NCBI RefSeq assembly: GCF_006770265.1
Contig: NZ_CP017194.1
Span: forward strand, 248,001-312,000
Reading direction: 5' to 3'
DNA: 64,000 nt
Source of the DNA: Lactococcus carnosus
GTDB taxonomy: Bacteria > Bacillota > Bacilli > Lactobacillales > Streptococcaceae
The position numbers were made by a program, and so were the translations under genes. Positions 8,924 through 44,517 of the stretch are shown piece by piece; the stretch's first letter is position 1; every line of letters begins with the position of its first letter. The notes beneath the pieces were generated by a model. That model saw only the letters and a program-made list of their open reading frames with translations. It had not been told where the DNA came from and did no database searches.

Positions 8924-9949
8924 ATGACATTTAAAGCGCTCTCTAAGAAACTAGAAATTGCAGATATCAAAGAGTTGGGTAAACTCTCTGAAGCCACTAA
9001 GGCGATAAAAGCAGGTCGTGACCGCGAACTCGAAGCCATTATCAAGGGAGAAGATAATCGTATCTTACTCGTGATTGGGCCATGTTCTTCTGATAATGAA
9101 GCTGCAGCGCTTGACTATGCACATCGTTTAGCTAAACTTCAAGAAGAAGTGAAAGATAAAATTTTTATGGTGATGCGCGTTTATACGGCAAAACCACGTA
9201 CAAATGGAGACGGCTATAAGGGCTTGATTCATCAGCCAGATGCAACGGCACAACCGAATTTACTGAATGGGATTAAGGCTGTTCGTGAATTACACTATAA
9301 AGTGATTACTGAAACAGGACTAACAACTGCAGACGAAATGTTGTATCCTGAAAATCTGCGTATTGTAGACGATTTAGTGAGTTATATCGCTGTTGGTGCA
9401 CGGTCAGTTGAAAATCAACAACACCGTTTTGTTGCCTCAGGGATTGATGTGCCAGTAGGGCTGAAAAATCCAACATCTGGTAATCTTAATGTGATGTTCA
9501 ACGGTATCTATGCTGCCCAATCACCACAAAATTTTCTGTTTAACCGAACAGAAGTGGAAACACAAGGTAATCCATTAGCCCATGCTATTTTGCGTGGTGC
9601 TCTAAACGAATATGGTAAAAATATTCCGAACTACTACACTGATAACTTATTAGATGCGATTGCTAGCTATGATAAGATGGGACTTCAAAATCCATTTATC
9701 ATGATCGATACGAATCATGATAATTCAGGGAAACGATATTTGGAACAAATCAGAATTATTCGTCAAACGTTAATTAATCGTAAGTGGAATCCGCTTATTC
9801 ATAAATATGTTCGAGGGTTTATGATCGAATCGTATTTAGAGGATGGGCGACAAGATGAACCAGTTGTATTTGGTAAATCAATCACAGATCCGTGTTTAGG
9901 ATGGGATAAAACAGTCGCATTGATTAATGAAATATATGAGACACTTTGA
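8924..9949 (+). CDS. aroF: 3-deoxy-7-phosphoheptulonate (DAHP) synthase, first copy
   Basis: This 341-residue class I DAHP synthase condenses phosphoenolpyruvate and erythrose-4-phosphate, the entry step of the shikimate pathway. Family motifs are present: IGPCSSDN near residue 50, RVYTAKPRTNGDGYKG near residue 85, GARSVENQQHR and DTNHDNSGK. The start lies 36 bases after secA. A weak hairpin (about 9996-10017) follows. A close paralogue comes next. Such pairs often differ in feedback control by phenylalanine or tyrosine, but I cannot assign which is which. Confidence 0.93.
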   Translation: MTFKALSKKLEIADIKELGKLSEATKAIKAGRDRELEAIIKGEDNRILLVIGPCSSDNEAAALDYAHRLAKLQEEVKDKIFMVMRVYTAKPRTNGDGYKGLIHQPDATAQPNLLNGIKAVRELHYKVITETGLTTADEMLYPENLRIVDDLVSYIAVGARSVENQQHRFVASGIDVPVGLKNPTSGNLNVMFNGIYAAQSPQNFLFNRTEVETQGNPLAHAILRGALNEYGKNIPNYYTDNLLDAIASYDKMGLQNPFIMIDTNHDNSGKRYLEQIRIIRQTLINRKWNPLIHKYVRGFMIESYLEDGRQDEPVVFGKSITDPCLGWDKTVALINEIYETL

Positions 9950-10067: not shown

Positions 10068-11099
10068 ATGGGAATTCATCAAAAAGGTAATGCAATCGAT
10101 ATCGCTAAAATTAAAACACATGCTAAATTAACAGATGACGCATTAGCTAAAAAAAAGGCACGAGACCTTGAATTGATGCAAATCATCAAGGGTGAAGATG
10201 ATCGTGTCTTACTCGTTATTGGGCCATGTTCCTCAGATAATGAGACGGCTGTATTAGATTATGCCCACCGCTTGGCTGCCTTACAAGAAGCAGTAAAAGA
10301 CAAGATTTTTATGGTCATGCGTGTCTACACTGCTAAGCCAAGAACAAATGGAGACGGCTATAAAGGGCTGATGCATCAACCAGATACGTCGAAATTACCT
10401 GATTTAATTAATGGTATCCATGCAGTTCGTGATTTACATTATAAAGTGATTACACAAACTGGTTTGACTACTGCAGATGAGATGCTCTACCCCTCTAACT
10501 TACATATGGTAGATGACCTAGTGAGTTACCATGCAATTGGTGCACGTTCTGTTGAAGATCAAGAACACCGCTTTGTTGCTTCAGGAATTGATGTGCCAAC
10601 GGGGATGAAAAATCCAACTTCAGGAAATCTTAGTGTCATGTTCAATGCCGTACATGCAGCACAAAATAAACAAAATTTCTTATATGGTAATGCAGAAGTT
10701 GATACAGATGGTAATCCGCTTGCACATGTTATCTTACGTGGTGCAACAAATGAGTACGGAGAAAACGTCCCAAATTACTACTACGATAATCTCTTAAAAG
10801 CGATTGCCCAATATGAAAAATTAGGCCTTCAAAATCCATTTATCATGGTTGATACCAACCATGATAATTCAGGTAAACAGTTCATGGAGCAAATCAGAAT
10901 TGTTCGACAAACCTTAATCAACCGCGACTGGAATGACAAAATCAAACAAACAGTCCGTGGCTTCATGATTGAATCTTATATTGAGGACGGTCGCCAGGAC
11001 ACGCCTGAGGTTTATGGGAAGTCGATTACGGATCCATGCTTAGGTTGGGACAAGACAGCAGCGTTGGTAAATGAGATTTATACGACGTTGAACAAATAA
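10068..11099 (+). CDS. aroF: 3-deoxy-7-phosphoheptulonate (DAHP) synthase, second copy
   Basis: The 343-residue paralogue of the preceding gene has the same catalytic motifs (IGPCSSDN, RTNGDGYKG, DTNHDNSGK) and the same length. The N-terminal 25 residues, which in this family carry part of the regulatory surface, diverge most from copy one (MGIHQKGNAIDIAK versus MTFKALSKKLEIAD). It has its own ribosome binding site (AAGGAA) 9-14 bases before the ATG and a terminator just after the stop. Tandem duplication with regulatory divergence is the natural interpretation. Confidence 0.93.
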   Translation: MGIHQKGNAIDIAKIKTHAKLTDDALAKKKARDLELMQIIKGEDDRVLLVIGPCSSDNETAVLDYAHRLAALQEAVKDKIFMVMRVYTAKPRTNGDGYKGLMHQPDTSKLPDLINGIHAVRDLHYKVITQTGLTTADEMLYPSNLHMVDDLVSYHAIGARSVEDQEHRFVASGIDVPTGMKNPTSGNLSVMFNAVHAAQNKQNFLYGNAEVDTDGNPLAHVILRGATNEYGENVPNYYYDNLLKAIAQYEKLGLQNPFIMVDTNHDNSGKQFMEQIRIVRQTLINRDWNDKIKQTVRGFMIESYIEDGRQDTPEVYGKSITDPCLGWDKTAALVNEIYTTLNK

Positions 11100-27895: not shown

Positions 27896-29091
27896 GTAGT
27901 GCTCCCCAAAACTGGACAAAAAATCCAACTTATAGGGAGTTTTATTATGGTAAAATATTCATATGAATTAAAACAACAAGTTATTGAAGATTACTTAGAT
28001 GGTATTGGGGGGATAAAATATTGGCCAAAAAGTATTATTTACCGACAAAGTCAATTATTCTACAGTAGCTAAATGTTTATGAAAATTATGGTTTTGAAGG
28101 CTTAAAAATTAAGCGAAAAAACGCACGTATTCTCGCTAATTTAAGTTGTATGCGATAGCATGTTATGTAACCAAAGCTCTTTCGTATCGTGAAATTGCTA
28201 ACTAGCTTGATATTGATGCCACAGCACTTCTGACTGCTTGGGTGCTTAAATACAAAAAAATGGTACAAATGATTTTAAAAATGAAGGAAAGCTCAGAAAT
28301 ATAGATCCTATGCCAAAAGTGCAACCTAATGAAGTGCAAAATCAACGCATTCGAGAACTGAAAATTCAACTTAGAAAAGCACAATTGAAGTAGATTGTTT
28401 AAAAAAATTGCGGAGACTTCGCGAAGCAAAACTTATCAAAAAAAGTTAAAATAGTGCGTAGTCTCCGTCATAAATATATGCTTACTGAGTTATTAGCGAT
28501 GGTCCAACTAGCTAAATCCAGCTATTTCTATACACTTCATGCCAAAGAAAATAAGGACGTTGCACTCGAAAATAAAATTAAGGAGATACGTCAAGTACAT
28601 CCTAATCATTGCTATCGAACCATCACAGCGCTTCTCAGACGTGATGGAATGATTATCAATGAGAAACGTGTGTTACGAATTTTGAGAAAATTACAGCTTC
28701 TCGTGACTAGTTTTCATCACAAATCAAGAAAATATAGTTCTTATCGAGGGTGTGTAGGGAAAGTAGCCAAACATTTGATTAGAAGACGATTTGAAACCAT
28801 GATTTTCCATCAAAAAATCACAACAGATACGACTGAATTCAAGTATTATGATAACGGTAATATCAATAAAGCTTATCTTGATCCCTTTCTTGACCTATTC
28901 AATCTTGAAGTTATTTCCCCCAGCATTACTAAACACCCCAATGCACAATCTATTATGTATGCGTTCAATCAGGTAATTTACATCACTTCAAACTGTCCTT
29001 TGCGTCGTACTTTTCATTCTGATCAAGGCTGGCTTTCTCCAACTGAATACCGTTTGAAAATGGTACAATAACAAAAAAATCGAATGTAATT
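27896..29091 (+). mobile_element. Degenerate IS3-family element, left boundary of the island
   Basis: The left end reads TAGTGCTCCCCAAAACTGG, and an inverted copy of the same end lies at 44500-44517. An orfA remnant starts at ATG 27946 (MVKYSYELKQQVIEDYLDG) but is interrupted after about 41 codons. A truncated orfB-like frame runs from about 28454 to 29071 with KIKEIRQVHPNHCYRTITALLRRDG (family HTH and IS150-type region) and a catalytic TDTTEFKYYDN and HSDQGW segment, with no C-terminal DDE glutamate. The element is inactive. It begins about 55 bases after the ABC exporter stop. Confidence 0.75.
28454..29071 (+). pseudogene. IS3-family transposase orfB remnant
   Basis: A 205-codon frame matches the IS150-type orfB: the domain ahead of the DDE core, then DTTEFKYYDNGNINKAYLDPF around the first catalytic Asp and FHSDQGW around the second. 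It stops before the region holding the third catalytic residue (Glu) and its lysine, so it cannot encode an active enzyme. The upstream orfA and the linking frame are broken by several stops. Confidence 0.75.
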
Positions 29092-29346
29092 ATTCGAGCC
29101 AGACTGAAAACAAAGTCCCCGTGGCTTTGTCTGTTTTATTGAAAAGAGGTATAATATAATCAATAAGTGATTTGGAGATTTTCTATGATTGGTAAACTAG
29201 CGTAAAATGCCAGAAATCAGATGCAATTTTTAATGCTTGATGAATTAATTCCAAAAGACCATATACTTCGTCAAATTGACGAAACAGTGGATTTCACCTT
29301 CATTTATAAGTTGGTTGTGGATAAGTATACGTTTGATAATGGTCGT
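29092..29346 (+). mobile_element. Left-end fragment of an IS1182-like element
   Basis: CAGACTGAAAACAAAGTCCC at about 29100 corresponds to the terminal repeat of the IS1182-like copy at 32514-33830. The coding part gives MLDELIPKDHILRQIDETVD and FTFIYKLVVDKYTFDNGRP, the N-terminus of an IS1182-type transposase, and then switches abruptly into IS3 sequence at 29347. Confidence 0.75.
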
Positions 29347-30231
29347 CCGTGTATTATTGAAGCGAAACAAGTAAAACGCTTCGAGTTTCTCTTGAAACAT
29401 CATGGGAAGATAAAAATTAAGCATGCAGTAAGATTTCTTAGGGTTTCTCGTTCCGGATTCTATGAGTATATGCATCGTCGTCCTTCAAAACGACAAGTGG
29501 AGCGAGAAGTTCTCTCTGAGAAAATTAAGGCTATATTTCATGAACATAAAAGACGCTATGGTACAGTTAGAATTACAAAAGTACTTCATAATTCTGATGT
29601 TTTGACCAACACGAAGCGTGTCGGAAAAGTGATGCACTTAATGGGACTCTACGCTAAGGGAAACCGTTATAAATATAAGCATTACAACAGAAAAAGGGCA
29701 TCACTTTCAAGGCCAAATTTAATTAATCAGGTCTTTAAAGCAACAGCTCCTAATATAGTATGGTTGGGAGATATGACCTATGTACCAACCAAAGAATGGA
29801 CGTTATACTTAGCCATAAATATTGACGTGTTTTCACGTAAAATTGTAGGTTGGTCAATGTTTTCACGGATGAAAGATAAACTGGTTATTGATTGCTTCTT
29901 GCAAGCTTATGGGAAAGAACACCCTCAGCCTGATTTGATTGTCCATACTGATCAAGGGAGTGAATATACAAGCTCCCTTGATCAATCTACCCTTCGTCAA
30001 GTCGGTGCTAAATCCAGTATGAGTCGTAAAGGCAATCCCTATGACAATGCCATGATGGAGTCTTTTTATAAGACGCTAAAGAGGGAACTGATTAGTGATG
30101 CTTATTTTGAGACAAGAGCTGAGGCTACCCAAGAAATCTTTAGATACATTGATACCTACTACAATACAAAGAGGATGCATTCAGCTCTTGATTACAAGTC
30201 TCCAAAAGACTTCGAAAAATATAATTATTAA
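29221..30231 (+). CDS. Chimeric transposase ORF: IS1182 N-terminus fused to IS3 orfB
   Basis: This 336-codon frame is a fusion. The first 42 residues are the start of an IS1182-like transposase. From CIIEAKQVKRFEF on it is IS3-family OrfB with the HTH_21 region (SGFYEYMHRRPSKRQ), then the rve integrase core WLGDMTYVPTKEW (first Asp), VHTDQGSEY (second Asp) and NAMMESFYKTLKRE (third Glu). The DDE triad is therefore complete. The OrfA half with the DNA-binding domain is missing, so activity in cis is doubtful. A second near-identical orfB lies at 43483-44268. Confidence 0.8.
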   Translation: MQFLMLDELIPKDHILRQIDETVDFTFIYKLVVDKYTFDNGRPCIIEAKQVKRFEFLLKHHGKIKIKHAVRFLRVSRSGFYEYMHRRPSKRQVEREVLSEKIKAIFHEHKRRYGTVRITKVLHNSDVLTNTKRVGKVMHLMGLYAKGNRYKYKHYNRKRASLSRPNLINQVFKATAPNIVWLGDMTYVPTKEWTLYLAINIDVFSRKIVGWSMFSRMKDKLVIDCFLQAYGKEHPQPDLIVHTDQGSEYTSSLDQSTLRQVGAKSSMSRKGNPYDNAMMESFYKTLKRELISDAYFETRAEATQEIFRYIDTYYNTKRMHSALDYKSPKDFEKYNY

Positions 30232-30298
30232 ATTCTCTTAACTCTGTGTCTAGTTTTCCGTTGACTTTCCACATTTGTCCAGTTTTATGGGTGCACAT
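29347..30298 (+). mobile_element. IS3-family element, copy A (left-truncated)
   Basis: The first 786 bp (29347-30132) are nearly identical to 43483-44268, and the element continues to a right end near 30298 with CCAGTTTTATGGGTGCACA. The left end and orfA are lost at the junction with IS1182 sequence. Its right end sits inside the TIR-domain gene on the opposite strand. Confidence 0.8.
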
Positions 30299-31138
30299 CA
30301 ATATAATGAGTTCTTTTAGATTTTTTAGCTTTATACCGTGTTGCGATGATAAGCTAGATAATTGTTTATTTGATAGTTTTTTTTTATTGTCAACTATATT
30401 TTGTTTTAAAAAAATTGCAAGCTTTTCTTTCTTCATTACGTTATTGAATTTATGGTCACTTATCAAATAATTTAATATATACTCTTGATCAACTAATTCA
30501 CTAGAATCTAATTCTAATGTAGGATCAGAGTACTCTTTATCACGAACAGACAGCAATATTTCTCTTAACATATCATCTTGAGATAATAGACTAGCATCTC
30601 TTATTTCAGGATGTACTTCATCTTCATTAATTTCATTAACTTTTTTTAAATCGAAATCGAAATCTTTCCATAAACGATTAAAATTATTTTTTATAGTTTG
30701 TTCAGGTATTTTATTCCAATTTTCCTGAAAATCATTAATATCTATAAAAACTTTTAGTAATGATTCTTTATCAATTTTGAACCCTTGATATGCGCTGAAA
30801 GGCTCTCCAATTTTTTCTATGTCTATATCATATAATAGAGGAATTATTCGATGCTTTTCGAGTGTTCTACTTATAGCACCAGCTTCAAAATATATCCATT
30901 TAGAAGATAAATTAGTCGATGTCAGAAAGACAATTCCAAAATTTGTATTATTTAAGCAAGACTCTATGTTTTGTCTCTACTTCTCTCCACCTTTAATTTC
31001 ATCACTTGAAAAATAAAAAGAGACATTTGTTAACAGGTCTTTTCCATATAATACAAATAATCTGGCTAACTCTTTACTTCTTTTTCCTGACCAACTTATA
31101 AAAACTGTATCCTTTTGATTAACAAAACCTGCTGACAT
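30299..31138 (-). pseudogene. TIR-domain protein gene, interrupted by a stop codon and an IS
   Basis: Read on the minus strand from ATG 31138 (GGAG ten bases upstream), the frame begins MSAGFVNQKDTVFISWSGK and fits a TIR domain: VFISWSG, FSSDEIKGGEK, FGIVFLTSTNLSSKWIYFEAGA. The Glu in FEAGA (codon 85) is at the position of the NAD+-hydrolase catalytic Glu in TIR enzymes. Codon 54 is TAG (30977-30979). The frame then stays open for about 225 codons until IS3 copy A cuts it near 30299, so the C-terminus is lost. Stand-alone bacterial TIR proteins of this type are often antiviral; that role is inference. Confidence 0.75.
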
Positions 31139-31517: not shown

Positions 31518-32431
31518 ATGAGATTAGAACATTTTAATTACGAAGCAGTTAATATTCAAGAAATTTTTAGAGAATTGCGGAAAGCACGAGGTTATACACA
31601 AGCTGATATTAGCGATGATATATTATCTAGATCCTTAATTTCTAAATTTGAAAATGGGACAAGCATGTTATCCGCGGATAAACTTTTTCATGCTATCGCT
31701 AATTTGAATATGACACCAAATGAGTTTTATAATATCTTGAATACTTATAACCCAACTCGTATGGAAAAACTTTATAGTACATTAAATCAAATTCGCTTCT
31801 CTGGTCTTCAAGGTGTTAAAAAAGCAGAAGGATTTATCATAGAAGGAACAGAAGATAAATTTCAAATTTTATCGAATATTATGATTAAAAGTGTATTACA
31901 AGATATAACAGGAAATCAATATGTTTCAAAAGAAGAAGAATATATTGTAGAAAAATATTTAGGAGGCATAGAAGATTGGACAGAGTTTGAAGTTAAGTTA
32001 CTTTACTATGTTTCACCAATTTTAGATGATGATAACCGTCGTTGGTTTGGTGAAATTCTTTTGGAGAAAACAAAAAAGATTTATGATGGTTCCTATAAGC
32101 GCTTATGTATGATGGCTTTAATGAGTTTGTATGATAGTGTGCTTGATAATCAAAATTTAAGTGATGCTCAGTTTTTTAGGAATCAAATCTCGAAATTTAA
32201 TTTTTATGGAGATCTAGTTGCAATAATAAATTTTCAAGTATTAAATGATTTTCACGATTATATTAGTGAAAGAACAAAAAAAACCTTATAAAAGCAGAAA
32301 AGTACTTAGATAAGGTTGAAGAATTAGGAGTCGAAGAAATTGTTAAGTATTCCAGAAATCGACTTAGGGATTTAAAATCCCCACCACCAGATGTTAGCCA
32401 AATTAAACACGGACAATCTCCTTTATATTAG
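31518..32431 (+). pseudogene. Rgg/MutR-family regulator, frameshifted near its 3' end
   Basis: The first frame (257 codons, to 32291) has an N-terminal Xre helix-turn-helix (FRELRKARGYTQADISDD then SRSLISKFENGTSMLSADKL, about residues 12-50) and the helical-repeat C-domain of Rgg/MutR regulators. At a run of eight A (about 32273-32281) the frame breaks. Removing the shift continues it as KNLIKAEKYLDKVEELGVEE to TAG 32431, giving the usual length of about 300. MutR proteins control lantibiotic operons, so it is the natural regulator of the nearby lan genes. The loss is small, and a sequencing error in the A-run is possible. Confidence 0.72.
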
Positions 32432-32453
32432 TATAAATTAATTATATATCAGG

Positions 32454-32513
32454 TTCTGTATTCTTTATAAAAGTCGAAAATCTTCCCATAGTATTGTGGA
32501 AAGATTTTCGATT
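32454..32513 (+). repeat. Palindromic target sequence, left copy
   Basis: GTCGAAAATCTTCCCATAG and its imperfect complement form a hairpin of about 40 bp here, repeated at 33831-33872. The two copies flank the IS1182-like element. The outer parts TTCTGTAT and ATACAGAA are also inverted relative to each other, as if the original site was one palindrome of about 80 bp. A bidirectional terminator after the regulator is a likely original function. Confidence 0.75.
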
Positions 32514-33830
32514 CAGACTAAAGATAAACCCACCGAATTTTCTTGGTGGGTTTGTCTTTTTTTGTTCAGTTTGTCGAATTTGATGAATTTGAGCAAATAA
32601 TCAAGGTCTCTTTGATGTGACCCCGAAAATACAAACTTTTAAAATCAAGCAGTAAATGCTTGATTTTTTTTGTTAGTTTGATAATGCCATCCGATATTAA
32701 GGCATGCCAAAGTAATCCCGACTTTAACTTGCATATTTTATAACCCAATTTGATTCGTATAACGCATCTAGTAGAATTTTTTTGCCGTCCCAAACAATCG
32801 CTCAATCGTTTCCTTGCGCTTATCATAGATTGTTTTAATGCCAATTGTGTGGCAGATATCCTCAACTTGATCCATCGCGAACTTAAGAAACAAATTTCAC
32901 AGTCTTTAGGATTGCTTTTATAAAATTTGTAGCCCTTACGATTTGTCGTCGCATACCTTAAAAGTTTATCATGAGGACAGTTATAGCCATTATAAAATTC
33001 ATCATAGACATGCACACACTTCCTAAAAAAACCAGCCTTCATCATCGGATGTTTGTAAGGTAAAATTGGTATGCTATCTTGACTTAAGAGATTGTGTGCA
33101 ATAGTGAGTGTTTTATACCCGCGTCCAAGATGAACTTATCTAGCAATCACTGTTTTCTAGTTAACTTGTCAAATAACGCTTTTACCGTACTGCGGCTATC
33201 ATATTCATTTCCAAGATGACTGGTGTAGGCAAACGCCACTTGTTCAGAGTAGGAGAAGACCTCCTTATGTTTACCTTTATGATAACAACCACTTTCCAGG
33301 TCAGTTTTGGATATTTTCTTAGAATTTGAGTCACTTACGGTCAACCCCAATTTCTTTTTAGAGTGCATCTTTGTACCAAAGATCGGTTTCCTCAATTACA
33401 ACACTTGATGAATTTCAACGCTTTTAGTTTTTCCTGATATTGTGAAATGAGGGACCTCATCTAGCAAGCTCAGATCTAGAAACCAACGATAAACGGCATT
33501 AACCTTGATGTCTTTTATTGTTTGATGCATGCTTTTAATAGCACACAGGTACTGTAAAAGTGGGTGTTTAATTAGCATGACTGGATCAAGAGATGGACAA
33601 CCATCATCAAGTGGACACTTGTCCATAACCAACTTATAAATGAAGGTAAAATCACCGGTTTCGTCAATTTGAAGAAGCAGTTGATCTTCTGGTATTAACT
33701 CATCAAGCGTTAAAACTTACATCTGATTTCTAGCATTTTGCGTCAGTTTACCAATCAAAAAAAATCACTTATTGATTATGTTACACTTTTTTTTAATAAA
33801 AAAATCCACGGTGACTTTGTCTTCAGTCTG
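32514..33830 (-). mobile_element. IS1182-like element with a decayed transposase
   Basis: The terminal inverted repeats start CAGACTGAAGACAAAG on one side and CAGACTAAAGATAAAC on the other. On the minus strand transposase pieces can be read in several frames: DELIPEDQLLLQIDETGDF, then PSLDPVMLIKHPLLQYLCAI with RWFLDLSLLDEVPHF, then NSKKISKTDLESGCYHKGKHKEVF, then a C-terminal piece. Numerous frameshifts and stops make it inactive. A long palindromic target flanks it on both sides, which agrees with the long, palindromic target duplications reported for the IS1182 family. Confidence 0.78.
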
Positions 33831-33890
33831 AGTCGAAAATCTTCCCATAGTACTATGGGAAGATTTTCGACTTTTATAAAGTATACAGAA
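33831..33890 (+). repeat. Palindromic target sequence, right copy
   Basis: GTCGAAAATCTTCCCATAGT and its complement form a nearly perfect hairpin (33832-33872), followed by CTTTTATAAAGTATACAGAA, the inverted match of the bases left of the 32.45 kb copy. Confidence 0.75.
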
Positions 33891-33959
33891 TCTATGATAG
33901 AGTACTAATATAAGGATTTAAAATATATTCTTATAGCACTTGTTGCGTATACTGAAGAA

Positions 33960-34291: not shown

Positions 34292-37197
34292 ATGAAATCA
34301 AATATTAATGAAATTCAAGAAATTTCCAAAAAGATCAGTGGCAGGGAAGATATTATTACTTTGTATCAAGAATATGGGCATGATATTTTATCCAATTTGA
34401 AGAGTAATAAATTAGATAGCTATGGTATTTGGAAAAATTTTATCCACTGTGAACAGCATTCTATTTTGGAATGTCTGCTTCTTTTTGCACACAGCTCATA
34501 TCAGAAATCGATAGACTATTGTTGGAGAATGAAGAGTATTTTAACATAATAAAAATAAAAAATACTATAAAAAAAGATATGATTAGAAATATATTAGTTA
34601 TATCAAATAGTATATGGACAACAGAGATAAGGAATTTTGGTGGAACAGAGGAAGAATTTTTTAAAAAAATTTCTAGGGATTTTAATTTTTTTAATAAAAT
34701 ATTAGTTAAGTATCCTTATTGGTACATATCCTTAAGTAGCTTTTTATTTGATACTGTAGAATTTTTAATTAGTTTTTTTAAGCATTTAATTAGTGACTAT
34801 GAAATTGTAATGAAGAAGTTTATGGATAATATAGTCAAAATAGATGATTTAAATCTTGCAATGGGAGATAGGCATAGAGGGAAATTTGTCATTGAAGTTG
34901 TAACACTAGAAGGAAATTTCTTTTATAAACCAAGATCAGGAGAGATAGATAATGCTTTCAAAAACATTCTAAATGTCTTATCTTCTAAAAAAGAAATTCT
35001 AGACATGCATTATCCAGATTTTATTGATTGTAAAGAATACTCATGGTTCAATAAAATTAACTATAAAGTATTATCTAGCTCTGCTGAATTTCGAGACTAT
35101 TATATACGACTAGGTCAGACTATTGCAATAATCTATATCCTAAATGGAGGGGATCTTCATTATGAAAATATAATCTCACATGGTCCTTACCCAATAATTA
35201 TAGATAGTGAGCCATTATTAACTAATAGGTTAAGATTTAAAAAAAATGATACATCTACTCTTATACAAAATAATTCTATTAATTATTTAGATGATTCTGT
35301 AAGAAATTCACTGATGTTACCAAATGTTTTTAGTCTCAGAGGACAATATTTTGAGTTTAGTCCACTTAAAATTTATGATGAGTTAGGCCCAAATACACAA
35401 GAGGATAAAAAAAAATCATGTAATCATAAAGTACTGAAAAGTGAATTAAATATGGTATCAGAATTCGTATGCTTAGGATTTATGAATACATACGAAGAAG
35501 TTTTAAAAAATAGAGAGAATTATAAAAAATACATTACTAACCAGTTCAAGGATTTAAGGTTAAGATTTTTGAATAAACCCACAGATGATTACTCTAAGGT
35601 AAGAGATTTATTAAGAAATCCCGTATGTTTCTATGATTTTAGATATGCTTTTGCTATATCATCCAAAATTTTAAACAATTTTCAAGGGATACCAAGACCT
35701 GAAGAAATTTCTGAACAGGCTGAGATGTTAAGCTTTAATATACCGTACTTTGAAATTAGGGCTAATTCTAAAGATTTGATTATTTCATACAGTAAAGTAA
35801 TAGAAAATTTTTTTATTGAAAAACCGATTGATGGTTTAACTCATAAAATCGATATTTTAGGAAGAATTGATTTACATAGGCAACTCAAAATAATAAGACA
35901 AATGTTTTCTATTATTTCTCCAGATTTTAAGATTAGCGAATTGAATAGTGTAAAACATTACAATAAGCCGAAGTTTTACTATTCTGATCAGGAAGCAAGA
36001 ATCTATAGTGAAAAATTAATTGAACAAATATTTGATATGTCTACAACCAATCCAATAACAAATCAATATATTTGGACAGGACCAGAGCTAGAAGGAAATT
36101 TAAAAACAAGACAGTTCTATTATAGAAATTTGGATTATCCTAATAGCTATTATAGTGGCAGCGTTGGAATTTTAATCGGGTTACTCAAACTTGAAAATTA
36201 CTATAAATATAATTCATATATTAAAAAACTAATAGTAGATATTGAAATTGATATTGATAATATATTAAGTAGTAAAGATACGGGAATAAATATTGGTGCA
36301 TATAATGGAATTTCTCAATATATAAAGTACTATATTGATTTATATAGTGTAAAAAAAGTTAAATTTGACTACTTCTTAGATCGTATAGATAAACTAGTTA
36401 ATAAAATCCATGCCTCCCTTGAGAAGGATAAAAAATTAGATATATTAGATGGGACAGCAGGAGTCTCTATGACTTTAATTGCTCTGTTAGATATAAATAT
36501 TCCTGAAAAGCTTAGGGAAAAAGTGATTGCACTTATTAGTAAATGTCATGATCACCTTATTAATTCTATAATTATTAGGGATGGAGAATATTATTTTCCA
36601 ACTGAACAGGACAAGGAGAAATTTTTTACAGGATTTGCACACGGGACATCCGGGATAACTATGGCCTTATATAAGGCAGGAAAAATATTAAGTATAGATA
36701 ACTCAAAAATTATAGAAAAAATTATAGAAACTGAAAGAAAATATTATAACAAAGTTGATAAATGTTGGTATAGAGATAATAGTAAAAAGGATATTTCATG
36801 GGGATGGTGTCATGGGGTTCCAGGGATCTTACTTTCTAGAGTTGAACTATTTTCAGATGGTTATCGTGATAAATATTTACTTAATGAAATTGAGGAATTA
36901 TATAAGATTACTATTCACGAAAGTTTGGGAACTAATCTTACATTCTGTCATGGTGATCCTGGGAATTTAACTATCTGTAAATATGTTCAGCGAAAGCTTT
37001 CTTTTATTGACGAAGATTTGGATAACTATATCAAGTCACTGATATTTTGCATAATTAATTCTGAGGAATATTGTATACGTGGGAATGAAGCACCTGGTTT
37101 AGTTCAAGGGAAAATGGGTATAGTTAATTTTATAAATGCTGATTTAAAAAATGATTTTGACCCGCTATTCGACATTATAATGATGACTTCTAAATGA
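34292..37197 (+). pseudogene. lanM: Class II lanthipeptide synthetase LanM1 (single frameshift)
   Basis: The N-terminus (MKSNINEIQEISKK) starts at ATG 34292 in one frame and breaks near 34480; the other 880 or so residues continue in the next frame to 37197. One missing T in CTTCTTTTTGC (34478-34488) would restore a protein of about 968 residues, normal for LanM. The dehydratase domain shows GDRHRGKFVIEV, FYKPRSGEID and NGGDLHYENIISHG followed by PIIIDSEPLL. The cyclase domain keeps all zinc ligands: WCHGVPG (Cys) and FCHGDPG (Cys, His). It would dehydrate Ser/Thr and close thioether rings on a LanA substrate. A sequencing error in the T-run cannot be excluded. Confidence 0.82.
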
Positions 37198-37273
37198 GAA
37201 TAAAACTATTTGCTATTTTTTAATAAAAGTTTTTTTTCAGTGAGTAAGTTTCGCTGAAAATAGGAGAGAAAAA

Positions 37274-38101
37274 ATGAATATTTTAACTATCAGTAACTTG
37301 AATTTTTCGTATGGGAAAAAAAGAATTATTAACAATGGAAATTTATCTGTAGAATCGGGAGATATTGTGGGGCTGATAGGAAATAATGGGTCAGGGAAAA
37401 CCACTCTTATGAAATTAATATCAGGTATAATTCCTGGATACTCAGAAAATATTACTGTTAATTCTAAAAGTATAGGAATTCTTATTGAGGAACCGAGTCT
37501 ATATAAAGATATGACAGTGATAGAAAATCTACGATTTTATTGTAAACTGTACAGAAAAGAATATGATGTTATTTCTAAGTATAAAAAGATATTAGGTGTA
37601 GAAACTTTTTTAAATAAAAAAGTTTCTAAATTATCTCTTGGAATGAAGCAACGTATTGGATTATTTAGTGCTTTAATAGCTTCAAACGAATTTGTTTTAC
37701 TCGATGAACCGACAAATGGTTTAGATCCTACAGGAATAGATGATTTATTAAAATTAATAAAAAAATTATCTCTAGATTTTGATATTACATTCATTATCTC
37801 AAGCCATATCTTAGAAAATTTAGATAAGATATGTAATAAAAATGTTTTGATAAGAGATGAAAAGTTGATTTATCTAGATTCCTCTGAATATATGAAGTTT
37901 AAAATTTACAGTTTTGAAGTTAGCCAAAATATGATAATAAAAATTTTAGAAGCGAAAGCAATCTCTTATGAATCAAACAAGAGAGATATCATAGTTTCAG
38001 CTTCGGATATTGAGCAGGTTGAATCTCTTTTTAACGAAAAAAATATTAGAATTAGTAAAGAAAAATCTAGCTTAAGTGAGGTATATTTCAATGAAAAGTA
38101 A
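37274..38101 (+). CDS. lanF: ABC transporter ATPase, LanF-type immunity subunit
   Basis: The 275-residue protein has Walker A GNNGSGKTT (about residue 36-44), signature LSLGMKQRIG, Walker B FVLLDEPTNGLDP and switch ISSHILENL. This is the BcrA/LanF type of single ATPase domain. In lanthipeptide clusters it forms an exporter with LanE/LanG that removes the mature peptide from the producer's membrane. It follows lanM1 after 76 bases with AGGAGAG upstream, and overlaps the next gene by 11 bases. Confidence 0.88.
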   Translation: MNILTISNLNFSYGKKRIINNGNLSVESGDIVGLIGNNGSGKTTLMKLISGIIPGYSENITVNSKSIGILIEEPSLYKDMTVIENLRFYCKLYRKEYDVISKYKKILGVETFLNKKVSKLSLGMKQRIGLFSALIASNEFVLLDEPTNGLDPTGIDDLLKLIKKLSLDFDITFIISSHILENLDKICNKNVLIRDEKLIYLDSSEYMKFKIYSFEVSQNMIIKILEAKAISYESNKRDIIVSASDIEQVESLFNEKNIRISKEKSSLSEVYFNEK

Positions 38102-38804
38102 AGTAGAGATTTTATTTTTAAAAAAGGATATCTTTAGAGTAAGCTTACCGATTTTTTGGGGGCTGTCACTAATTTCAGGTTTCAGTATTATTTGGTCAAA
38201 AAATTATCTATCAGGACCTTTTAGAGTAGATAATATATACGCTATGTTTTCAACGATATCAAGTTTTATGTTAATGTATTTATCTGTAAGTCTGTTTGGA
38301 AAGGAATTTCAATATAAAACAATTAATATGATTCGAATTAGTAATAGAAGCCCATTAGAAATTATTATAAGGAAGTTGATTGTAATGGTTGTGGCTGGCT
38401 TAATTACTTCGTTACTATCATTTTTAGAAGTTCTTGTGGAGCAACTTTATTTTGGTCATACTGAGGTAAATTTGATAAATCTTTTGGGACGCTTAACTTT
38501 ATCTTATTTTGTTTATTGTTTATTCTTATTCTCTGTTGGTAGTATAATTGTTTTTCTTCTAAAAAATACACTATTTTCTTTCATTTGTATTCTTCTGTTC
38601 CTAAGAATAGGAGTGACTTTTATGAATATACTAAGCAATTTCTCAACAATGAGGTCTTTTGTACAATACATTCCTCTTTCTTTTGCTGAAACCTCTTTCT
38701 CATTTGCTAATTATACAGGAAAACAGATGTTAGTAATGGTATTATGGAGTTTTGTATTTTTATCTCTTACACCACTAATTTATAAAAAAAGGGGGTATGA
38801 GTAA
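38091..38804 (+). CDS. lanE: ABC transporter permease, LanE/LanG-type immunity subunit
   Basis: The protein of about 237 residues has six hydrophobic segments, as in LanE and LanG permeases. I use ATG 38091 with GAGG eight bases upstream, rather than GTG 38076. It overlaps lanF upstream and lanM2 downstream (TAATG), so lanF-lanE-lanM2 are coupled. Only one permease is present, where many clusters have two (E and G); a homodimer or a lost lanG are both possible. Confidence 0.78.
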   Translation: MKSKVEILFLKKDIFRVSLPIFWGLSLISGFSIIWSKNYLSGPFRVDNIYAMFSTISSFMLMYLSVSLFGKEFQYKTINMIRISNRSPLEIIIRKLIVMVVAGLITSLLSFLEVLVEQLYFGHTEVNLINLLGRLTLSYFVYCLFLFSVGSIIVFLLKNTLFSFICILLFLRIGVTFMNILSNFSTMRSFVQYIPLSFAETSFSFANYTGKQMLVMVLWSFVFLSLTPLIYKKRGYE

Positions 38805-41407
38805 TGATTAAATATGAAAGCAATAAGTTATCTAGTATTCATGGAATATTTGATTGTTATTACCAACAGTATGTTTCTAAAATATTAATTGAGTTAAACA
38901 AAGTTGAACCGAAAAAATTTTTCACTGAAAATATTAAAGAAACATGCCGTTATGAAATAGTTGATAAAATTATAGAACAAATATCTAATGTAACTACATA
39001 CTCTTTGATTGATTTCTACAATTATCACAAAAAAAAGAGTAATATTTCATATAAAGAGTTTAATAATTTACTAAAAAAGCAAGAGTTCGTTGATGAGTTT
39101 CATCTATTATACCCTCTAATCCCAACAAGATCAATAACTATAATTGAAAATTATACTCTTAAATTCGAAAATATTATGAAGATACTATTATATTATAAGA
39201 AAGATATTCTGCAATTTCTAAACGTTGAAGTTGACAATGAATTAGAAATATCATATCTTAATTCATTTGATGGGGATTTTCATAAGGAGACTTTTGTAGT
39301 AATTGTCGGTTTATATGATAGAAAAATAGTTATTAAAAAAAGAACTAATTTAGGAGAAAGAATATTAAATATAGTTCAAAAATACTTCAAAAAAGAATTC
39401 ATTGATATACCAGTTGCTAAAACATTACTTTTAAGTAATGACTTGTGTATACAAGAGTATATAAAAAATGATGATATTCTTGATAATAAGGAATTAAAGT
39501 CTTTCTATTTTAAATTTGGAGTTATGGCAGGTATCTTTACTGCATTAGGAAGTAAAGATTTACACAGTGAAAATATGATTGCTAATATTAATGGTCCATA
39601 TTTTATTGATTTAGAAGCAGCTATCACTTCAGAAGAACATATATTATCTTTTTCTTTTTTAAAAGAGAGCTATTTATTTGATTCAAATGAACAAAGAATG
39701 GTCTATGGCATGGTAGATCTAAGTGCCTTTAGTGGTGGAAATATTACTTCTTCAGAGTATTCTATAAAAAATAAAGGAAAAGACGATATTTCTTTAGGTA
39801 TCTCAGAATTTACGAATGAAGGTAAAAATATTCCCAAAAATTTGAGAGGAGTATTTGTTAACACATTTGATTATAGAAAAGAAGTTATTGACGGATTTAT
39901 TATTTCAATGAACATCTTGAAAAAATATAAGTCCTATTTAATTGAAGAACTTAAAGACATTGAAGATTATACTCATCGTCTTGTATTAAGAGATACTGGT
40001 TTCTATGCGAAATATCTTCATGATTTGAATTTCCCTTTATATACAAAAAATTTAAGTAAAACCCAAAATTATATAAAAATTTTAAAAAAAAGAAGTATCA
40101 GGGAAAAAAAAATACTTGATGAAGAAGTAGAATGTCTGGAAAAAAATATTATTCCTTACTTTACTAGTAGCGATTTTGAAAATAATGATGTGACTAGACT
40201 AAATTTTATTAATCATTTTTCAAAAGTAATTGATGGGATGGATAAAGAGTTACATTATCTAAATATGATACTGTCAAATGATGCTACAGAAGAATTTAAA
40301 ATAAACTTTTCAAGTAGTAAGAATAGGGTTTTCAGTGAAATAAAAGCCTTTGAAAACTACTGCTCAACAGAAGATTTATTTAAATACGGGGTAACTGATT
40401 ATTCTGTAACTGACAGGCTACTAGGTTACTATAATGATCTATTTACTTTTGGAGGATCCATACTAACTTTTAACAATATTATCAGTAACACAAAAAAATT
40501 AGATAAAGTATTAAATACAGTAAATTTTAATAGATGCAATTTTTATATTTCTGGTCTTACCGGTTATCAGTCAGGACTATTACTTAAATATATCCTTGGA
40601 CAAGAGACTAAAAATTATTTATCAGCCCGCGAAATGGCTTTAAAGAATGATGATATTGATTTTTCTACTTATGGTAGTGCAATAGTTATATTAGATTATT
40701 TGTATCGCCAAACGGATAAATTAGAATATTTAAAAGATATTAAGTTTTTAGGGGAGAAGTATCTTGAAAACATTGGGAAGCATAAACTAACAGGCATGTT
40801 GCATGGATACGCTGGAGATTTAATTGTTTTGAATGTACTTTTTCATTATTATAATAAAAATATTATAATAGAAAATATTGAAGAAGCTATTAAAAATGAA
40901 AATATTCATTTTGATAGCGGAAAAGCAAATTGGAGAGATTCCAGAGTTGAAGGAGTGAAAAACTTTCCTTGTGCAATATCTTATGGATCACCAGGTATAA
41001 TTATTAGTAGGTTAATTTTATTAAAAAACACTAGAATTTCAGTTAATTTACGGCAATCAATTTATAAAGATATTAAAAATGGTGTGTTAGGAATCATCAG
41101 CCAGCAGAGGTTTGAATTCTCAGATGATACGTTAATTAATGGCTATGCTGGTGCTGTTCTAACATTAAAAATAGTATTGGAAAGTAAAATTTTTAGTAAT
41201 AATCATGATTTAAATTGTAAAATCTTACAGTATGTTGACCAAGCAAAAAAAGAATTGACTTGTGAAGAGTGGCGATATGCAAAATTACAAAATATTTTTA
41301 ATCCATCATTTGCAAATGGGAGAATTGGAACGATTTTTGTATTATGGTACATTACAGCGGATGACCCAGAAAGATTTTCTATTTTTAAAAAGATATTAAG
41401 ATTATAG
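38804..41407 (+). CDS. Second LanM-like lanthipeptide synthetase with a degenerate cyclase
   Basis: This 867-residue protein is intact and shorter than a usual LanM. The dehydratase half shows VVIVGLYDRKIVIKKR, LCIQEYIKND and GSKDLHSENMIANINGPYFIDLEAA, so the DLHxEN motif is kept. The C-terminal half retains the LanC fold markers MLHGYAGDLIV, AISYGSPGIIISR and NGYAGAVLTLK, but every zinc ligand is changed: the WCxG Cys is Ser726 (SYGSPG) and the Cys-His of CHG is Ile778-Asn779 (INGYAG). It should therefore not cyclise by the zinc mechanism. It may act as a dedicated dehydratase or as a partner of LanM1. Confidence 0.8.
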   Translation: MIKYESNKLSSIHGIFDCYYQQYVSKILIELNKVEPKKFFTENIKETCRYEIVDKIIEQISNVTTYSLIDFYNYHKKKSNISYKEFNNLLKKQEFVDEFHLLYPLIPTRSITIIENYTLKFENIMKILLYYKKDILQFLNVEVDNELEISYLNSFDGDFHKETFVVIVGLYDRKIVIKKRTNLGERILNIVQKYFKKEFIDIPVAKTLLLSNDLCIQEYIKNDDILDNKELKSFYFKFGVMAGIFTALGSKDLHSENMIANINGPYFIDLEAAITSEEHILSFSFLKESYLFDSNEQRMVYGMVDLSAFSGGNITSSEYSIKNKGKDDISLGISEFTNEGKNIPKNLRGVFVNTFDYRKEVIDGFIISMNILKKYKSYLIEELKDIEDYTHRLVLRDTGFYAKYLHDLNFPLYTKNLSKTQNYIKILKKRSIREKKILDEEVECLEKNIIPYFTSSDFENNDVTRLNFINHFSKVIDGMDKELHYLNMILSNDATEEFKINFSSSKNRVFSEIKAFENYCSTEDLFKYGVTDYSVTDRLLGYYNDLFTFGGSILTFNNIISNTKKLDKVLNTVNFNRCNFYISGLTGYQSGLLLKYILGQETKNYLSAREMALKNDDIDFSTYGSAIVILDYLYRQTDKLEYLKDIKFLGEKYLENIGKHKLTGMLHGYAGDLIVLNVLFHYYNKNIIIENIEEAIKNENIHFDSGKANWRDSRVEGVKNFPCAISYGSPGIIISRLILLKNTRISVNLRQSIYKDIKNGVLGIISQQRFEFSDDTLINGYAGAVLTLKIVLESKIFSNNHDLNCKILQYVDQAKKELTCEEWRYAKLQNIFNPSFANGRIGTIFVLWYITADDPERFSIFKKILRL

Positions 41408-41416
41408 GTAAAGATA

Positions 41417-43363
41417 ATGAAAAAAATTAGCCCAGTTTTACAAATGAGTAGTACAGAGTGTGGACTATGTGTGACCATAATGATGATGGATTATTATGGA
41501 GTAGCTATAAATATTCATGATATTACTAAATTTTTCTCTATTGGTAGAGATGGTTCGAGTATCAAAGATTTAAAGACAATTTTTGCTCATTATAATTTTA
41601 AATCTTTTCTTTATAATGTGAAGAACAGTTTATCTCAGATACAGCCTCAAGCTCTTCCGTGTATTGCTTATAAATCGAGAGGTCACTTTGTTGTTATCGA
41701 AACTATAAGTACTAACAATGTGACAATATTAGATCCAGTTATAGGAAGAGTAAAGATTTCAAAAACAGAATTGGATAGAGAATATAAGAATATTATATTA
41801 AAAATAGAGCCTGATGATAATTTTAAAAAAATGAATACAAGGGGAAATGAATTTTATATCATAAAAGAAGCGCTTGTTTCAAATAAAAGTTTACTATATA
41901 AACTTGGTATAGTAACAGTTTTAGTATATGCAATTACTTTACTTATTCCTATTCTTTTAAAAAAAGTAGTAGATATTTTTTTAATGACAAATGTTTTGAA
42001 TAGTCAAATTAAGATTATCTCATTATCAATTTTGGTTAGTAGTATTGCATATTTAATGATAAATAAAATAAAGCTGCTTTTTAGTGTTAATTTATCAGTT
42101 TCAATTGATAAATTTTTAACTAATAAAGTTATAAGTAAACTTTTTAAAAATAAATTTGAATATTTTATTACTAGAACTAGTTCGGATATTCAGTACAGAT
42201 TAGCTCTACTGAAGGGCTTGAAAACGATAATAAGTACTGTTATTATCCAGACAATACTTGATATTGGGTCTATGATAGTAATATTTGTTTATATAGCTAG
42301 TATTCAAATAGCTTATTCATTGATCCTATTGTTATTTACGATAATTGTAATAACATTAAGCCTGTTAATACGTAATAAAATGCTTTTGTATAAAAATAAA
42401 GAACTTTCAGCAGATAATAAGCTTCAAGTTTTACAATACGATATTTTTAGATCAATATTTGATGTAAAGGTTCTTGGGTTAAGTCAAACAAAGCATAAAG
42501 TATGGAAGGAATATTATTCGGATTATATTTCTGCTCACAAGACTAGTCAATTGTTCTTGTCAAATTATCAGAATGTATTATCTTATGTCACTATTTATTT
42601 TCCAATATTTATTCCTCTAGTAGGAATTTGGATTAGTGGTACTGTAAATAATAATCAAATTGGAACAATAATATCATTGCAATCCCTTACGGGTATATAC
42701 GTTTCCGGTCTAATATCTATCTCTCAGTTAACTGACAATTTTACTAGTCTTAAGTCTTATATAACTAGAATTAATGATGTGTTAATGCAAGAAGATGAGA
42801 TTAATAGATCTAAAAAGATAAATTTTAGAGGGAATATTGAGGTTAAAAACCTATCTTTTAAATATCCTGGCGGTAAGGAAAGCATTTTAAGTAATATTTC
42901 ATTTTCTATTAGAGAGGGAGAGGAGGTAGCGATTGTAGGAGAGAGTGGTTCAGGTAAATCGACATTATTCTATATACTTTTGGGAGCATACGATAACTAT
43001 GAAGGACAAATAATGTATGATGGAGTAAATTTTCAAGAACTTAGCAAAGATAATTTTAGAGAACAAATAAGTGTAGTCCCGCAAAACCCCTTGCTATTTA
43101 GTGGGACCATACGAGAAAATCTTATACAAGATTCTTATTATGATGATAAATATATTTATGAAGTTCTAAGCAAAGTTTCAATGAGTGAATTTATAAAATC
43201 TCTTCCTATGGGACTCGACACCTTAATATCAGAGAATGGATTTAATATCTCGGGAGGACAAAAGCAACGAATTGCACTAGCTAGATCTATCATTAATAAG
43301 AGTTCTATATTTTTTCTAGATGAAGCAACTAGTCTCTATCGTTGGGTTCAAGAAGTTAAATAA
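41417..43363 (+). pseudogene. lanT: Lanthipeptide peptidase-exporter LanT, truncated by an IS
   Basis: The N-terminal C39 peptidase domain (1-135) has Gln9, Cys15 (STECG), His90 (RGHFVV) and Asp106 (LDPV), the catalytic set that cuts after double-Gly leaders. Membrane helices follow (about 155-440), then an ATPase domain with Walker A GESGSGKST, Q-loop VPQNPLLFSG, signature ISGGQKQR and Walker B FFLDEAT. Native sequence ends at 43333 after ATS, and nine residues of IS orfA plus a stop follow. The D-loop and switch His are lost, so export should fail. The start is ten bases after lanM2. Confidence 0.9.
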
Positions 43364-44268
43364 TATGGAGAAAATGCTTTTCCAGGAAACGGGACAGTCT
43401 TAGCTGATGCCCAACATAAGATTAAACTGTTGGAGAAAGAAAATCGTTATCTTCAGGAGGAACTTGAACTTTTAAAAAAGTTCCGTGTATTATTAAAGCG
43501 AAACAAGTAAAACGCTTCGAGTTTCTCTTGAAACATCATGGGAAGATAAAAATTAAGCATGCAGTAAGATTTCTTAGGGTTTCTCATTCCGGATTCTATG
43601 AGTATATGCATCGTCGTCCTTCAAAACGACAAGTGGAGCGAGAAGTTCTCTCTGAGAAAATTAAGGCTATATTTCATGAACATAAAAGACGCTATGGTGC
43701 AGTTAGAATTACAAAAGTACTTCATAATTCTGATGTTTTGACCAACACGAAGCGTGTCGGAAAAGTGATGCACTTAATGGGACTCTACGCTAAGGGAAAC
43801 CGTTATAAATATAAGCATTACAACAGAAAAAGGGCATCACTTTCAAGGCCAAATTTAATTAATCAGGTCTTTAAAGCAACAGCTCCTAATATAGTATGGT
43901 TGGGAGATATGACCTATGTACCAACCAAAGAATGGACGTTATACTTAGCCATAAATATTGACGTGTTTTCACGTAAAATTGTAGGTTGGTCAATGTCTTC
44001 ACGGATGAAAGATAAACTGGTTATTGATTGTTTCTTGCAAGCTTATGGGAAAGAATACCCTCAGCCTGATTTGATTGTCCATACTGATCAAGGGAGTGAA
44101 TATACAAGCTCCCTTGATCAATCTACCCTTCGTCAAGTCGGTGCTAAATCCAGTATGAGTCGTAAAGGCAATCCCTATGACAATGCCATGATGGAGTCTT
44201 TTTATAAGACGCTAAAGAGGGAACTGATTAGTGATGCTTATTTTGAGACAAGAGCTGAGGCTACCCAA
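43334..44268 (+). mobile_element. IS3-family element, copy B (truncated at both ends)
   Basis: The orfA end (LYRWVQEVK, stop, YGENAFPGNG and a KIKLLEKENRYLQEELELLKK leucine-zipper segment) is fused to lanT. A canonical A-AAA-AAG slippery heptamer at 43474-43480 would make the -1 shift into orfB (43483 on), which keeps the DDE residues in WLGDMTY, VHTDQGSEY and NAMMESF. At 44268 orfB breaks and runs into the inverted end of the other IS3-type element. The left end and N-terminal orfA are missing. It matches copy A over 786 bp with a handful of substitutions. Confidence 0.85.
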
Positions 44269-44517
44269 AATTCGCGAGAATACGTGCGCTTTTTCTGCTT
44301 AATTTTTAATCCTTCAAAAACCATAATTTTCATAAACATTTAGCTACTGTAGAAGAATTGACTTAGTGGGTAAATGATACTTTTTGGCCAATTTTTTATA
44401 ACCCCCAGGACCGTCTAAGTGATCTTGAATAACTTGTTGTTTTAATTCATATGAATATTTGACCATAATAAAACTCCCTATAAGTTGGATTTTTAGTCCA
44501 GTTTATGGGGAGCACTA
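44269..44517 (-). mobile_element. Inverted end fragment of the IS3-family boundary element
   Basis: Read on the minus strand this fragment repeats the left part of the element at 27896: TAGTGCTCCCCATAAACTGG, then ATG 44465 with MVKYSYELKQQVIQDHLDG and GGYKKLAKKYHLPTKSILL. It marks the right boundary of the island and is better preserved in orfA than the left copy. Confidence 0.8.

What the first reader, a model, noticed from the sequence alone, without database searches (positions are those of the whole stretch)
34292..43363. Dual-LanM class II lanthipeptide cluster in an unusual order
Two LanM-type synthetases, an ABC ATPase, one permease and a C39 exporter are arranged lanM1-lanF-lanE-lanM2-lanT, with lanF, lanE and lanM2 translationally overlapped. 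Two-LanM systems are known (lacticin 3147), but those I recall do not place the immunity ABC genes between the two synthetases. One LanM is zinc-competent and the other is not, suggesting division of labour.
Basis: partly seen in the sequence, partly recalled or inferred. Interest (0 to 1): 0.78.

Follow-up and report, generated by a model that had tools for sequence, protein, structure and literature searches.

The report
Broken Smb-type two-peptide lantibiotic cluster
This is the decayed remnant of a known kind of bacterial antibiotic-making gene cluster: its gene order is the normal one for that kind, the antibiotic peptide genes were not found, the self-protection pump is the part most likely still working, and one maker enzyme lacks the usual zinc site, as do its two closest relatives.

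Summary
The genes exist in the stated order (lanM1-lanF-lanE-lanM2-lanT), but that order is the published one of Smb/BHT-A two-peptide lantibiotics (smbM1FTM2GAB; passage of PMC6365430). Streptococcus ratti FA-1 and Lactococcus hircilactis show it with precursor-like genes. The window copy is decayed: the lanM1 frame is broken near its start, lanT runs into an IS3 remnant at 43330, and no precursor gene was found (control for the beta type; breaks). lanF-lanE is intact and evolved under purifying selection since its split from plasmid pIL3, which keeps only F-E and 60 codons of M2. Most likely remaining function: SmbFT-like immunity. The zinc split is real and more interesting than the order. 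The three M2 proteins have Ser-[Ile/Val]-Asn for the Cys-Cys-His triad, against CCH in all 35 other readable LanM rows of 45, yet keep dehydratase motifs and a conserved LanC domain. So it is a shared trait of the three clusters read, not local decay. Searches showed no print mention of it.

The parts
31518..32291 (+). Rgg/GadR/MutR-family regulator, probably the cluster's own
   Evidence: TIGR01716 and PF21259; S. ratti has an Rgg (27-28% identity) directly before M1
32415..33929 (.). Decayed insertion-sequence material (IS1182-like, inferred) between Rgg and lanM1
   Evidence: inverted arms 32415-32535/33809-33929; 33595-33837 matches 29093-29348 reversed; the ORF at 29221-30231 has a short IS1182 match
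34292..34549 (+). N-terminal piece of lanM1, in another frame, ends in a stop
34471..37197 (+). lanM1 main open frame (DUF4135 + LanC, zinc triad CCH); lacks the N-terminal ~50-60 residues of S. ratti M1
   Evidence: TIGR03897 419 bits; 44-45% to S. ratti M1, 39-40% to L. hircilactis M1
37274..38101 (+). lanF (SmbF-like ABC ATPase), intact
   Evidence: 88% to pIL3, 61% to S. ratti, 54% to L. hircilactis; dN/dS about 0.13 vs pIL3
38076..38804 (+). lanE (called T in the Smb cluster), permease, intact
   Evidence: 85% to pIL3, 49% to S. ratti, 44% to L. hircilactis; dN/dS 0.13 (NG86) to 0.15 (YN00) vs pIL3
38804..41407 (+). lanM2 (DUF4135 + zinc-less LanC), full length
   Evidence: 43% to S. ratti M2, 37-38% to L. 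hircilactis M2; PF13575 1.1e-38, PF05147 3.6e-11
40979..40981 (+). codon of Ser726, in the place of the first zinc ligand (Cys)
   Evidence: alignments
41135..41140 (+). codons of Ile778-Asn779, in the place of the Cys-His zinc ligands
   Evidence: alignments
41417..43363 (+). lanT (called G in the Smb cluster), C39 peptidase-ABC exporter, truncated at about 43333
   Evidence: 58% to S. ratti T over residues 1-630 of 698; PF03412 and PF00005
43330..44268 (+). IS3-family remnant joined to lanT, at the place where S. ratti has its two precursor-like genes
   Evidence: 88% to the IS3 stretch of L. lactis pVF50, annotated IS3
29346..30300 (+). second IS3 remnant, upstream of the cluster, 99% to the first over 787 bases

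Best explanation
A decayed Smb/BHT-A-type two-peptide class II lantibiotic cluster. In an intact copy, M1 and M2 would each modify one of two precursor peptides, T would cut the leader and export, and F-E would be the producer's immunity pump. Here no precursor is found, M1's frame is broken and T is cut by an IS3 remnant, so production is almost certainly lost. F-E are intact and most likely still work, or recently worked, as lantibiotic immunity, as may also hold for pIL3, which kept only this pair. Shown: order, homology, breaks, past selection on F-E. Inferred: immunity function, loss of production.
For: Published order smbM1FTM2GAB and the 'very similar' L. lactis KF146 llb cluster, with like clusters stated for S. 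mutans, S. gallolyticus, S. suis, S. rattus (passage of PMC6365430); a 7-gene Smb cluster is stated for S. ratti DSM 20564 (passage of PMC3751929), the strain that I read. Same order and overlaps in S. ratti FA-1 = DSM 20564 and L. hircilactis DSM 28960, with two small precursor-like ORFs each. Separate M1 and M2 clades with the same branching, both 100/100. lanT end and IS3 junction, lanM1 frame break. No precursor: the S. ratti A2 query finds L. hircilactis (E 2e-8) and S. ratti, not this genome. F and E dN/dS about 0.13 against pIL3. F next to E, and no LanM match at 1e-4, in 10 of 11 other neighbourhoods with an E-like match. SmbFT is listed as an Smb and haloduracin resistance transporter (passage of PMC4239024; also PMC9927145).
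Against: M2 is full length and not visibly decayed, so 'only immunity is kept' is not forced. A strongly divergent precursor would be missed, and the A1 search has no control in another species. The lanM1 break could be a sequencing error. dN/dS describes the time since the split from pIL3, not the present. Four of the 11 other E matches are marked with stops inside (in G599 perhaps only the end stop), so the pair also decays elsewhere. Three of the 11 (L078, L079, L080) have exporter-like matches to lanT at 19-30% identity nearby and may belong to other bacteriocin loci.
Confidence: 0.87

Rival explanations
1. A working producer whose precursor genes lie elsewhere in the genome, with lanM1 and lanT used in their present form or helped by another exporter.
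For: M2, F and E are intact; M1 keeps a 908-residue frame with all motifs looked at.
Against: No precursor found with S. ratti A1 or A2, with a positive control for A2; T lacks the residues after the Walker B region, including the IAHRLS segment seen in both relatives; only two LanC_like matches in the genome, both in this cluster.
Confidence: 0.05
2. A new cluster architecture, unrelated to described two-LanM systems.
For: Lacticin 3147 (pMRC01) and the S. aureus plasmid cluster that I take from recall as staphylococcin C55 do have a different order, M1-T-M2 with F/E outside.
Against: Same order in Smb/llb (passage) and in S. ratti and L. hircilactis.
Confidence: 0.02
3. M2's missing zinc site is simply decay of this broken cluster; the protein is dead.
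For: The cluster is decayed; the M2 clade sits on a long branch, 2.23 changes per column; M2's LanC is somewhat less conserved than M1's (38-41% vs 42-47%).
Against: The same replacements S-[IV]-N stand in two other clusters with open genes and precursor-like ORFs; M2's LanC is nearly as conserved as its own dehydratase (38-41% vs 40-46%), and the two former zinc motifs are among the 14-residue stretches richest in invariant residues (8 of 14), though at 18 residues about 17% of LanC windows do as well.
Confidence: 0.07
4. In this cluster type M2 is a dehydratase only, and M1's zinc cyclase closes the rings of both peptides. (A split within the best explanation, not an alternative to it.)
For: M2 keeps GD.H, IKKR, DLH..N, D.E and R..T-type motifs and lacks all three zinc ligands; zinc-ligand mutants of lacticin 481 synthetase are said, in a title in the reference list of PMC10301443, to keep dehydration but to be impaired in cyclisation.
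Against: A pure dehydratase would not need a conserved LanC domain with the TG..HG motif kept; zinc-free class III cyclases work (passages of PMC10604976).
Confidence: 0.4

Closest known systems
Smb (S. mutans) / BHT-A (S. ratti) two-peptide lantibiotic cluster
   Same: Order M1-F-E-M2-T, overlapping F/E/M2, Rgg in front in S. ratti; 43-61% protein identity to S. ratti FA-1
   Different: In the window no precursor was found, the lanM1 frame is broken, lanT is truncated and insertion-sequence DNA lies on both sides
llb cluster of L. lactis KF146
   Same: Described as a 7-gene cluster very similar to smbM1FTM2GAB (passage)
L. lactis pIL3 F-E island
   Same: 86.8% DNA identity over window 37197-38982
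   Different: Only lanF, lanE and 60 codons of lanM2 remain, next to an IS6 transposase gene
Lacticin 3147 / staphylococcin C55 (the second named from recall)
   Same: Two LanMs, one C39 exporter, two peptides, F/E genes
   Different: M1-T-M2 order, F/E outside; both LanMs keep CCH
Class III LanKC (ThurKC), metal-independent cyclase
   Same: LanC-type domain without zinc ligands; first Cys also replaced by Ser (passage)
   Different: M2 has the class II DUF4135 dehydratase; the other replacements are Ile/Val and Asn, not Phe and Asp

Membership tests
Smb/BHT-A-type two-peptide lantibiotic cluster | gene order M1-F-E-M2-T | tested here: met
Smb/BHT-A-type two-peptide lantibiotic cluster | M1 and M2 each group with their S. 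ratti counterpart | tested here: met
   35 of 45 rows used
Smb/BHT-A-type two-peptide lantibiotic cluster | two precursor peptide genes | tested here: not met
   none found, so it is filed as a remnant, not as a working member
Smb/BHT-A-type two-peptide lantibiotic cluster | intact C39 exporter | tested here: not met
Smb/BHT-A-type two-peptide lantibiotic cluster | production of a synergistic two-peptide lantibiotic | not testable with these tools
   needs culture and mass spectrometry
Class II lanthipeptide synthetase LanM (for M2) | DUF4135 dehydratase with catalytic motifs | tested here: met
   (which motifs are catalytic is recalled)
Class II lanthipeptide synthetase LanM (for M2) | LanC domain | tested here: met
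   PF05147 42.7 bits, cut-off 23.2; best fold hits of a modest model are LicM2, then CylM
Class II lanthipeptide synthetase LanM (for M2) | zinc triad CCH/CCC in LanC | tested here: not met
   S-I-N; NCBIfam TIGR03897 195.5 bits, below its cut-off 304. M2 is filed as a LanM-like, zinc-less relative.
SmbFT-type immunity ABC transporter (for F-E) | kinship to the F-E pair of an Smb cluster (S. ratti) and position between M1 and M2 | tested here: met
SmbFT-type immunity ABC transporter (for F-E) | protection against Smb-like lantibiotics | not testable with these tools
   reported for SmbFT only (passages)

The most novel reading that the evidence does not exclude
The M2 enzymes of Smb/BHT-A-type clusters form a fixed clade of class II synthetases that lost zinc but still work: they dehydrate the beta-peptide and close its rings by a metal-independent LanC site (Ser, Ile/Val, Asn in place of Cys, Cys, His), a second origin of metal-free lanthionine cyclisation outside class III; or they hand the dehydrated peptide to the zinc cyclase of M1, which would split one LanM's two reactions between two proteins.
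Probability: 0.5. Interest if true: 0.6.

Novelty: new member of a known kind. Interest (0 to 1): 0.35.

Why it matters
The order itself is ordinary. Two things carry some weight. First, an intact immunity pump in a cluster that can no longer make its lantibiotic fits the picture of former producers that keep resistance; published precedents are nis and mutacin-K8 remnants (passages). Second, and more testable, M2 lacks the zinc ligands in all three clusters of this type that I could read. If M2 forms rings, metal-free cyclisation exists in class II; if it does not, two LanMs may cooperate on one peptide. Either answer would change how such two-LanM clusters are read and engineered.

Tried and rejected
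Tried without yield: M2 as a single query in genome contigs (58 stretches matched a pattern, none a relative); M2 alignment in viral contigs (100 stretches, none); M2 alignment in 398 genomes of the class (1 of 398, the window itself, at E 1e-50); M2 and M1 in 395 genomes of the order (own genome only, at 1e-20 and 1e-40); S. ratti M2 in plasmids (none at 1e-20). The M2 alignment in genome contigs gave 2 relatives among 74 stretches. So the M2 type is rare in these sets of one genome per species: 3 of 335 family genomes, the window's included, reach more than 500 bits. I did not have the Smb clusters of S. mutans GS5, S. suis, S. gallolyticus or L. lactis KF146, so their zinc columns are unread.

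Rejected: composite transposon. The two IS3 remnants lie in the same orientation 14 kb apart, but they cover different parts of the compared 1.5-kb stretch (positions 356-1310 and 204-1142), so each lacks something that the other has. Programmed frameshift in lanM1: judged only by reading the sequence; I regard a mutation or sequencing error as more likely. Weak tblastn hits of precursor peptides in the window (best E 0.006 at 51939, next 0.092) look like chance and lie away from the cluster. The promoter and terminator scan found no more than shuffles. The AlphaFold model of M2 is modest (mean pLDDT 66, pTM 0.48) and is not used for claims about the active site.

Papers: I saw only search listings and passages found by term, no whole text and no named section in full. 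The Smb paper of 2005 and the SmbFT paper of 2013 are not held and are known only through other papers. Numbering of catalytic residues in known LanC/LanM enzymes is recalled, except the ThurKC and NisC residues.
Full report
What is there. The window lies in a 2.16-Mb single-contig genome (G000:C1:248001-312000), in the same family as S. ratti and L. hircilactis. Its IS3 copies match mainly Lactococcus plasmids (116 of 119 records). From 30 to 44 kb the G+C content is 26-33%, against 37-42% in 23 of the 25 other 2-kb bins. There stand an Rgg regulator, insertion-sequence debris, lanM1, lanF, lanE, lanM2, lanT and an IS3 remnant. The two LanMs are the only LanC_like matches in the genome.

The order is the known Smb order. 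A passage of PMC6365430 gives smbM1FTM2GAB for S. mutans, describes a very similar 7-gene cluster in L. lactis KF146 and names like clusters in S. gallolyticus, S. suis and S. rattus. There F, T and G are called ABC-transporter components and G carries the peptidase domain, so M1-F-T-M2-G equals M1-F-E-M2-T here. A passage of PMC3751929 states a 7-gene Smb cluster, smbA and smbB included, in S. ratti DSM 20564. I checked this on sequence. S. ratti has Rgg-M1-F-E-M2-T followed by two small Cys-containing ORFs; L. hircilactis has two such ORFs, then M1-F-E-M2-T. That these ORFs are precursors is my reading of their sequences; the two A2 peptides match each other at 40%. Identities to the window are 45/61/49/43/58% (S. 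ratti) and 40/54/44/37/24% (L. hircilactis) for M1/F/E/M2/T. F/E and E/M2 overlap in all three, with mechanically chosen starts.

The window copy is decayed. lanM1's N-terminal codons and the rest are in different frames; open copies exist in both relatives. lanT's match to S. ratti T ends at 43333, residue 630 of 698, where IS3 DNA starts. The lost part includes the IAHRLS segment seen in both relatives. The weak L. hircilactis T match (23.5%) runs to 43453, through the stop and into the IS3 stretch; I discount it. Precursors of the S. ratti or L. hircilactis type were not found in the window, nor those of S. ratti in the genome. The same A2 query finds L. hircilactis at 2e-8 and S. ratti, so the empty answer for A2 means something. 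For A1 there is no such control.

F-E is the part that looks kept. L. lactis plasmid pIL3 carries lanF (88%), lanE (85%) and 60 codons of lanM2 (70%) beside an IS6 transposase gene, and none of the other window cluster proteins. Between window and pIL3, dN/dS (NG86) is 0.059/0.465 for F and 0.074/0.568 for E, against 0.139/0.378 for the shared start of M2. In the family set, 14 of 335 genomes have an E-like match at 1e-5. Three of these are the M2 carriers. In the other 11 I searched 12-16 kb each: F lies next to E in 10 of 11, and no M1- or M2-like match at 1e-4 appears in any (my script hid F and window-T or S. ratti-T rows under 33% identity with E above 1e-25, but no LanM rows, so a weak F in the eleventh could be hidden). 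Three of the 11 (L078, L079, L080) have exporter-like matches to lanT at 19-30% nearby and may be parts of other bacteriocin loci. Six of the 11 E matches are near full length without a stop, one is partial without a stop and four are marked with stops inside, one of these (G599) perhaps only the end stop. The weak ones (31-35% identity) may have another role. SmbFT is listed as a resistance transporter for Smb and haloduracin (passages of PMC4239024 and PMC9927145). Immunity genes left after loss of production are described for nis and mutacin K8.

The zinc question. I aligned 23 LanMs from two-LanM and other clusters, then 45 rows with 22 loci; 6 further matches had no locus and were not read. 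Of 45 rows, 38 have all three zinc columns readable (7 are cut or broken). 35 of these have CCH (two of the 35, L039 and L040, are identical) and 3 do not: the M2 of the window, S. ratti and L. hircilactis (S-I-N, S-V-N, S-V-N). All three keep the dehydratase motifs and the TG..HG motif of LanC. M2's LanC is 38-41% identical between clusters, its dehydratase 40-46%, and M1's LanC 42-47%, so the zinc-less domain is not drifting freely, though it is somewhat less conserved than M1's. The former zinc motifs are among the best-conserved 14-residue stretches of M2's LanC, but the excess is modest (about 17% of 18-residue windows do as well). In a tree of 35 of the 45 rows (10 short or unreadable rows dropped), M1 and M2 form two clades with the same inner order, both 100/100. 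M1 groups with starred support with Bvel_Ma, hsin_Ma and C871_Mb, of which the first two lie next to plantaricin C-type (alpha) precursors. M2 falls only weakly (86/94, open) among synthetases of the LtnM2 and LchA2/BrtA2-associated sort, on a long branch. An AlphaFold model of M2 is modest and resembles LicM2 and CylM best.

How it would work. In intact clusters I think M1 processes the alpha- and M2 the beta-peptide (inferred from the tree and from the two-peptide logic of lacticin 3147, recalled). How M2's peptide gets its rings is open: metal-free cyclisation, as in class III, where ThurKC has Ser-Phe-Asp in place of Cys-Cys-His (passage), or help from M1. In this genome the question is probably idle, since no precursor is found; the working remainder, if any, is F-E.

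Print check for the zinc-less M2. Searches and the passages read name zinc-less LanKC and the zinc-less LanM-like CA_C0082 of Clostridium acetobutylicum, which also lacks dehydratase residues, and a phylogeny with a group of undefined triad, but nothing on SmbM2 or the BHT-A M2. The original Smb papers are not held and most listed papers were not opened, so this is weak evidence of absence.

Noticed in passing
8924-9949 and 10068-11099: Two tandem DAHP synthase genes (PF00793), 73.6% identical as DNA over 903 bases.
   Followed up: no
27897-28142 and 44268-44517: A 250-base inverted repeat (92%) brackets the low-G+C island, beside IS3-type pieces on both sides; perhaps the scar of its arrival.
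   Followed up: partly
L046 (L. hircilactis), cluster exporter: Its T is only 24% identical to the window's, while M1, F, E and M2 are 37-54%: the exporter seems to have been swapped.
   Followed up: no
L075, L076 (G407, G408): Two small genomes (1.4-1.5 Mb) carry F-E at 76-78% and 67-71% identity with no LanM match within the 16 kb searched.
   Followed up: partly
L051 5358-8141 (pMRC01): LtnM2 of lacticin 3147 is annotated only as a DUF4135 domain protein but has the full CCH triad.
   Followed up: yes
30140-30571, minus strand: 143-residue ORF without Pfam or NCBIfam match, overlapping the end of the IS3 remnant upstream of Rgg.
   Followed up: no
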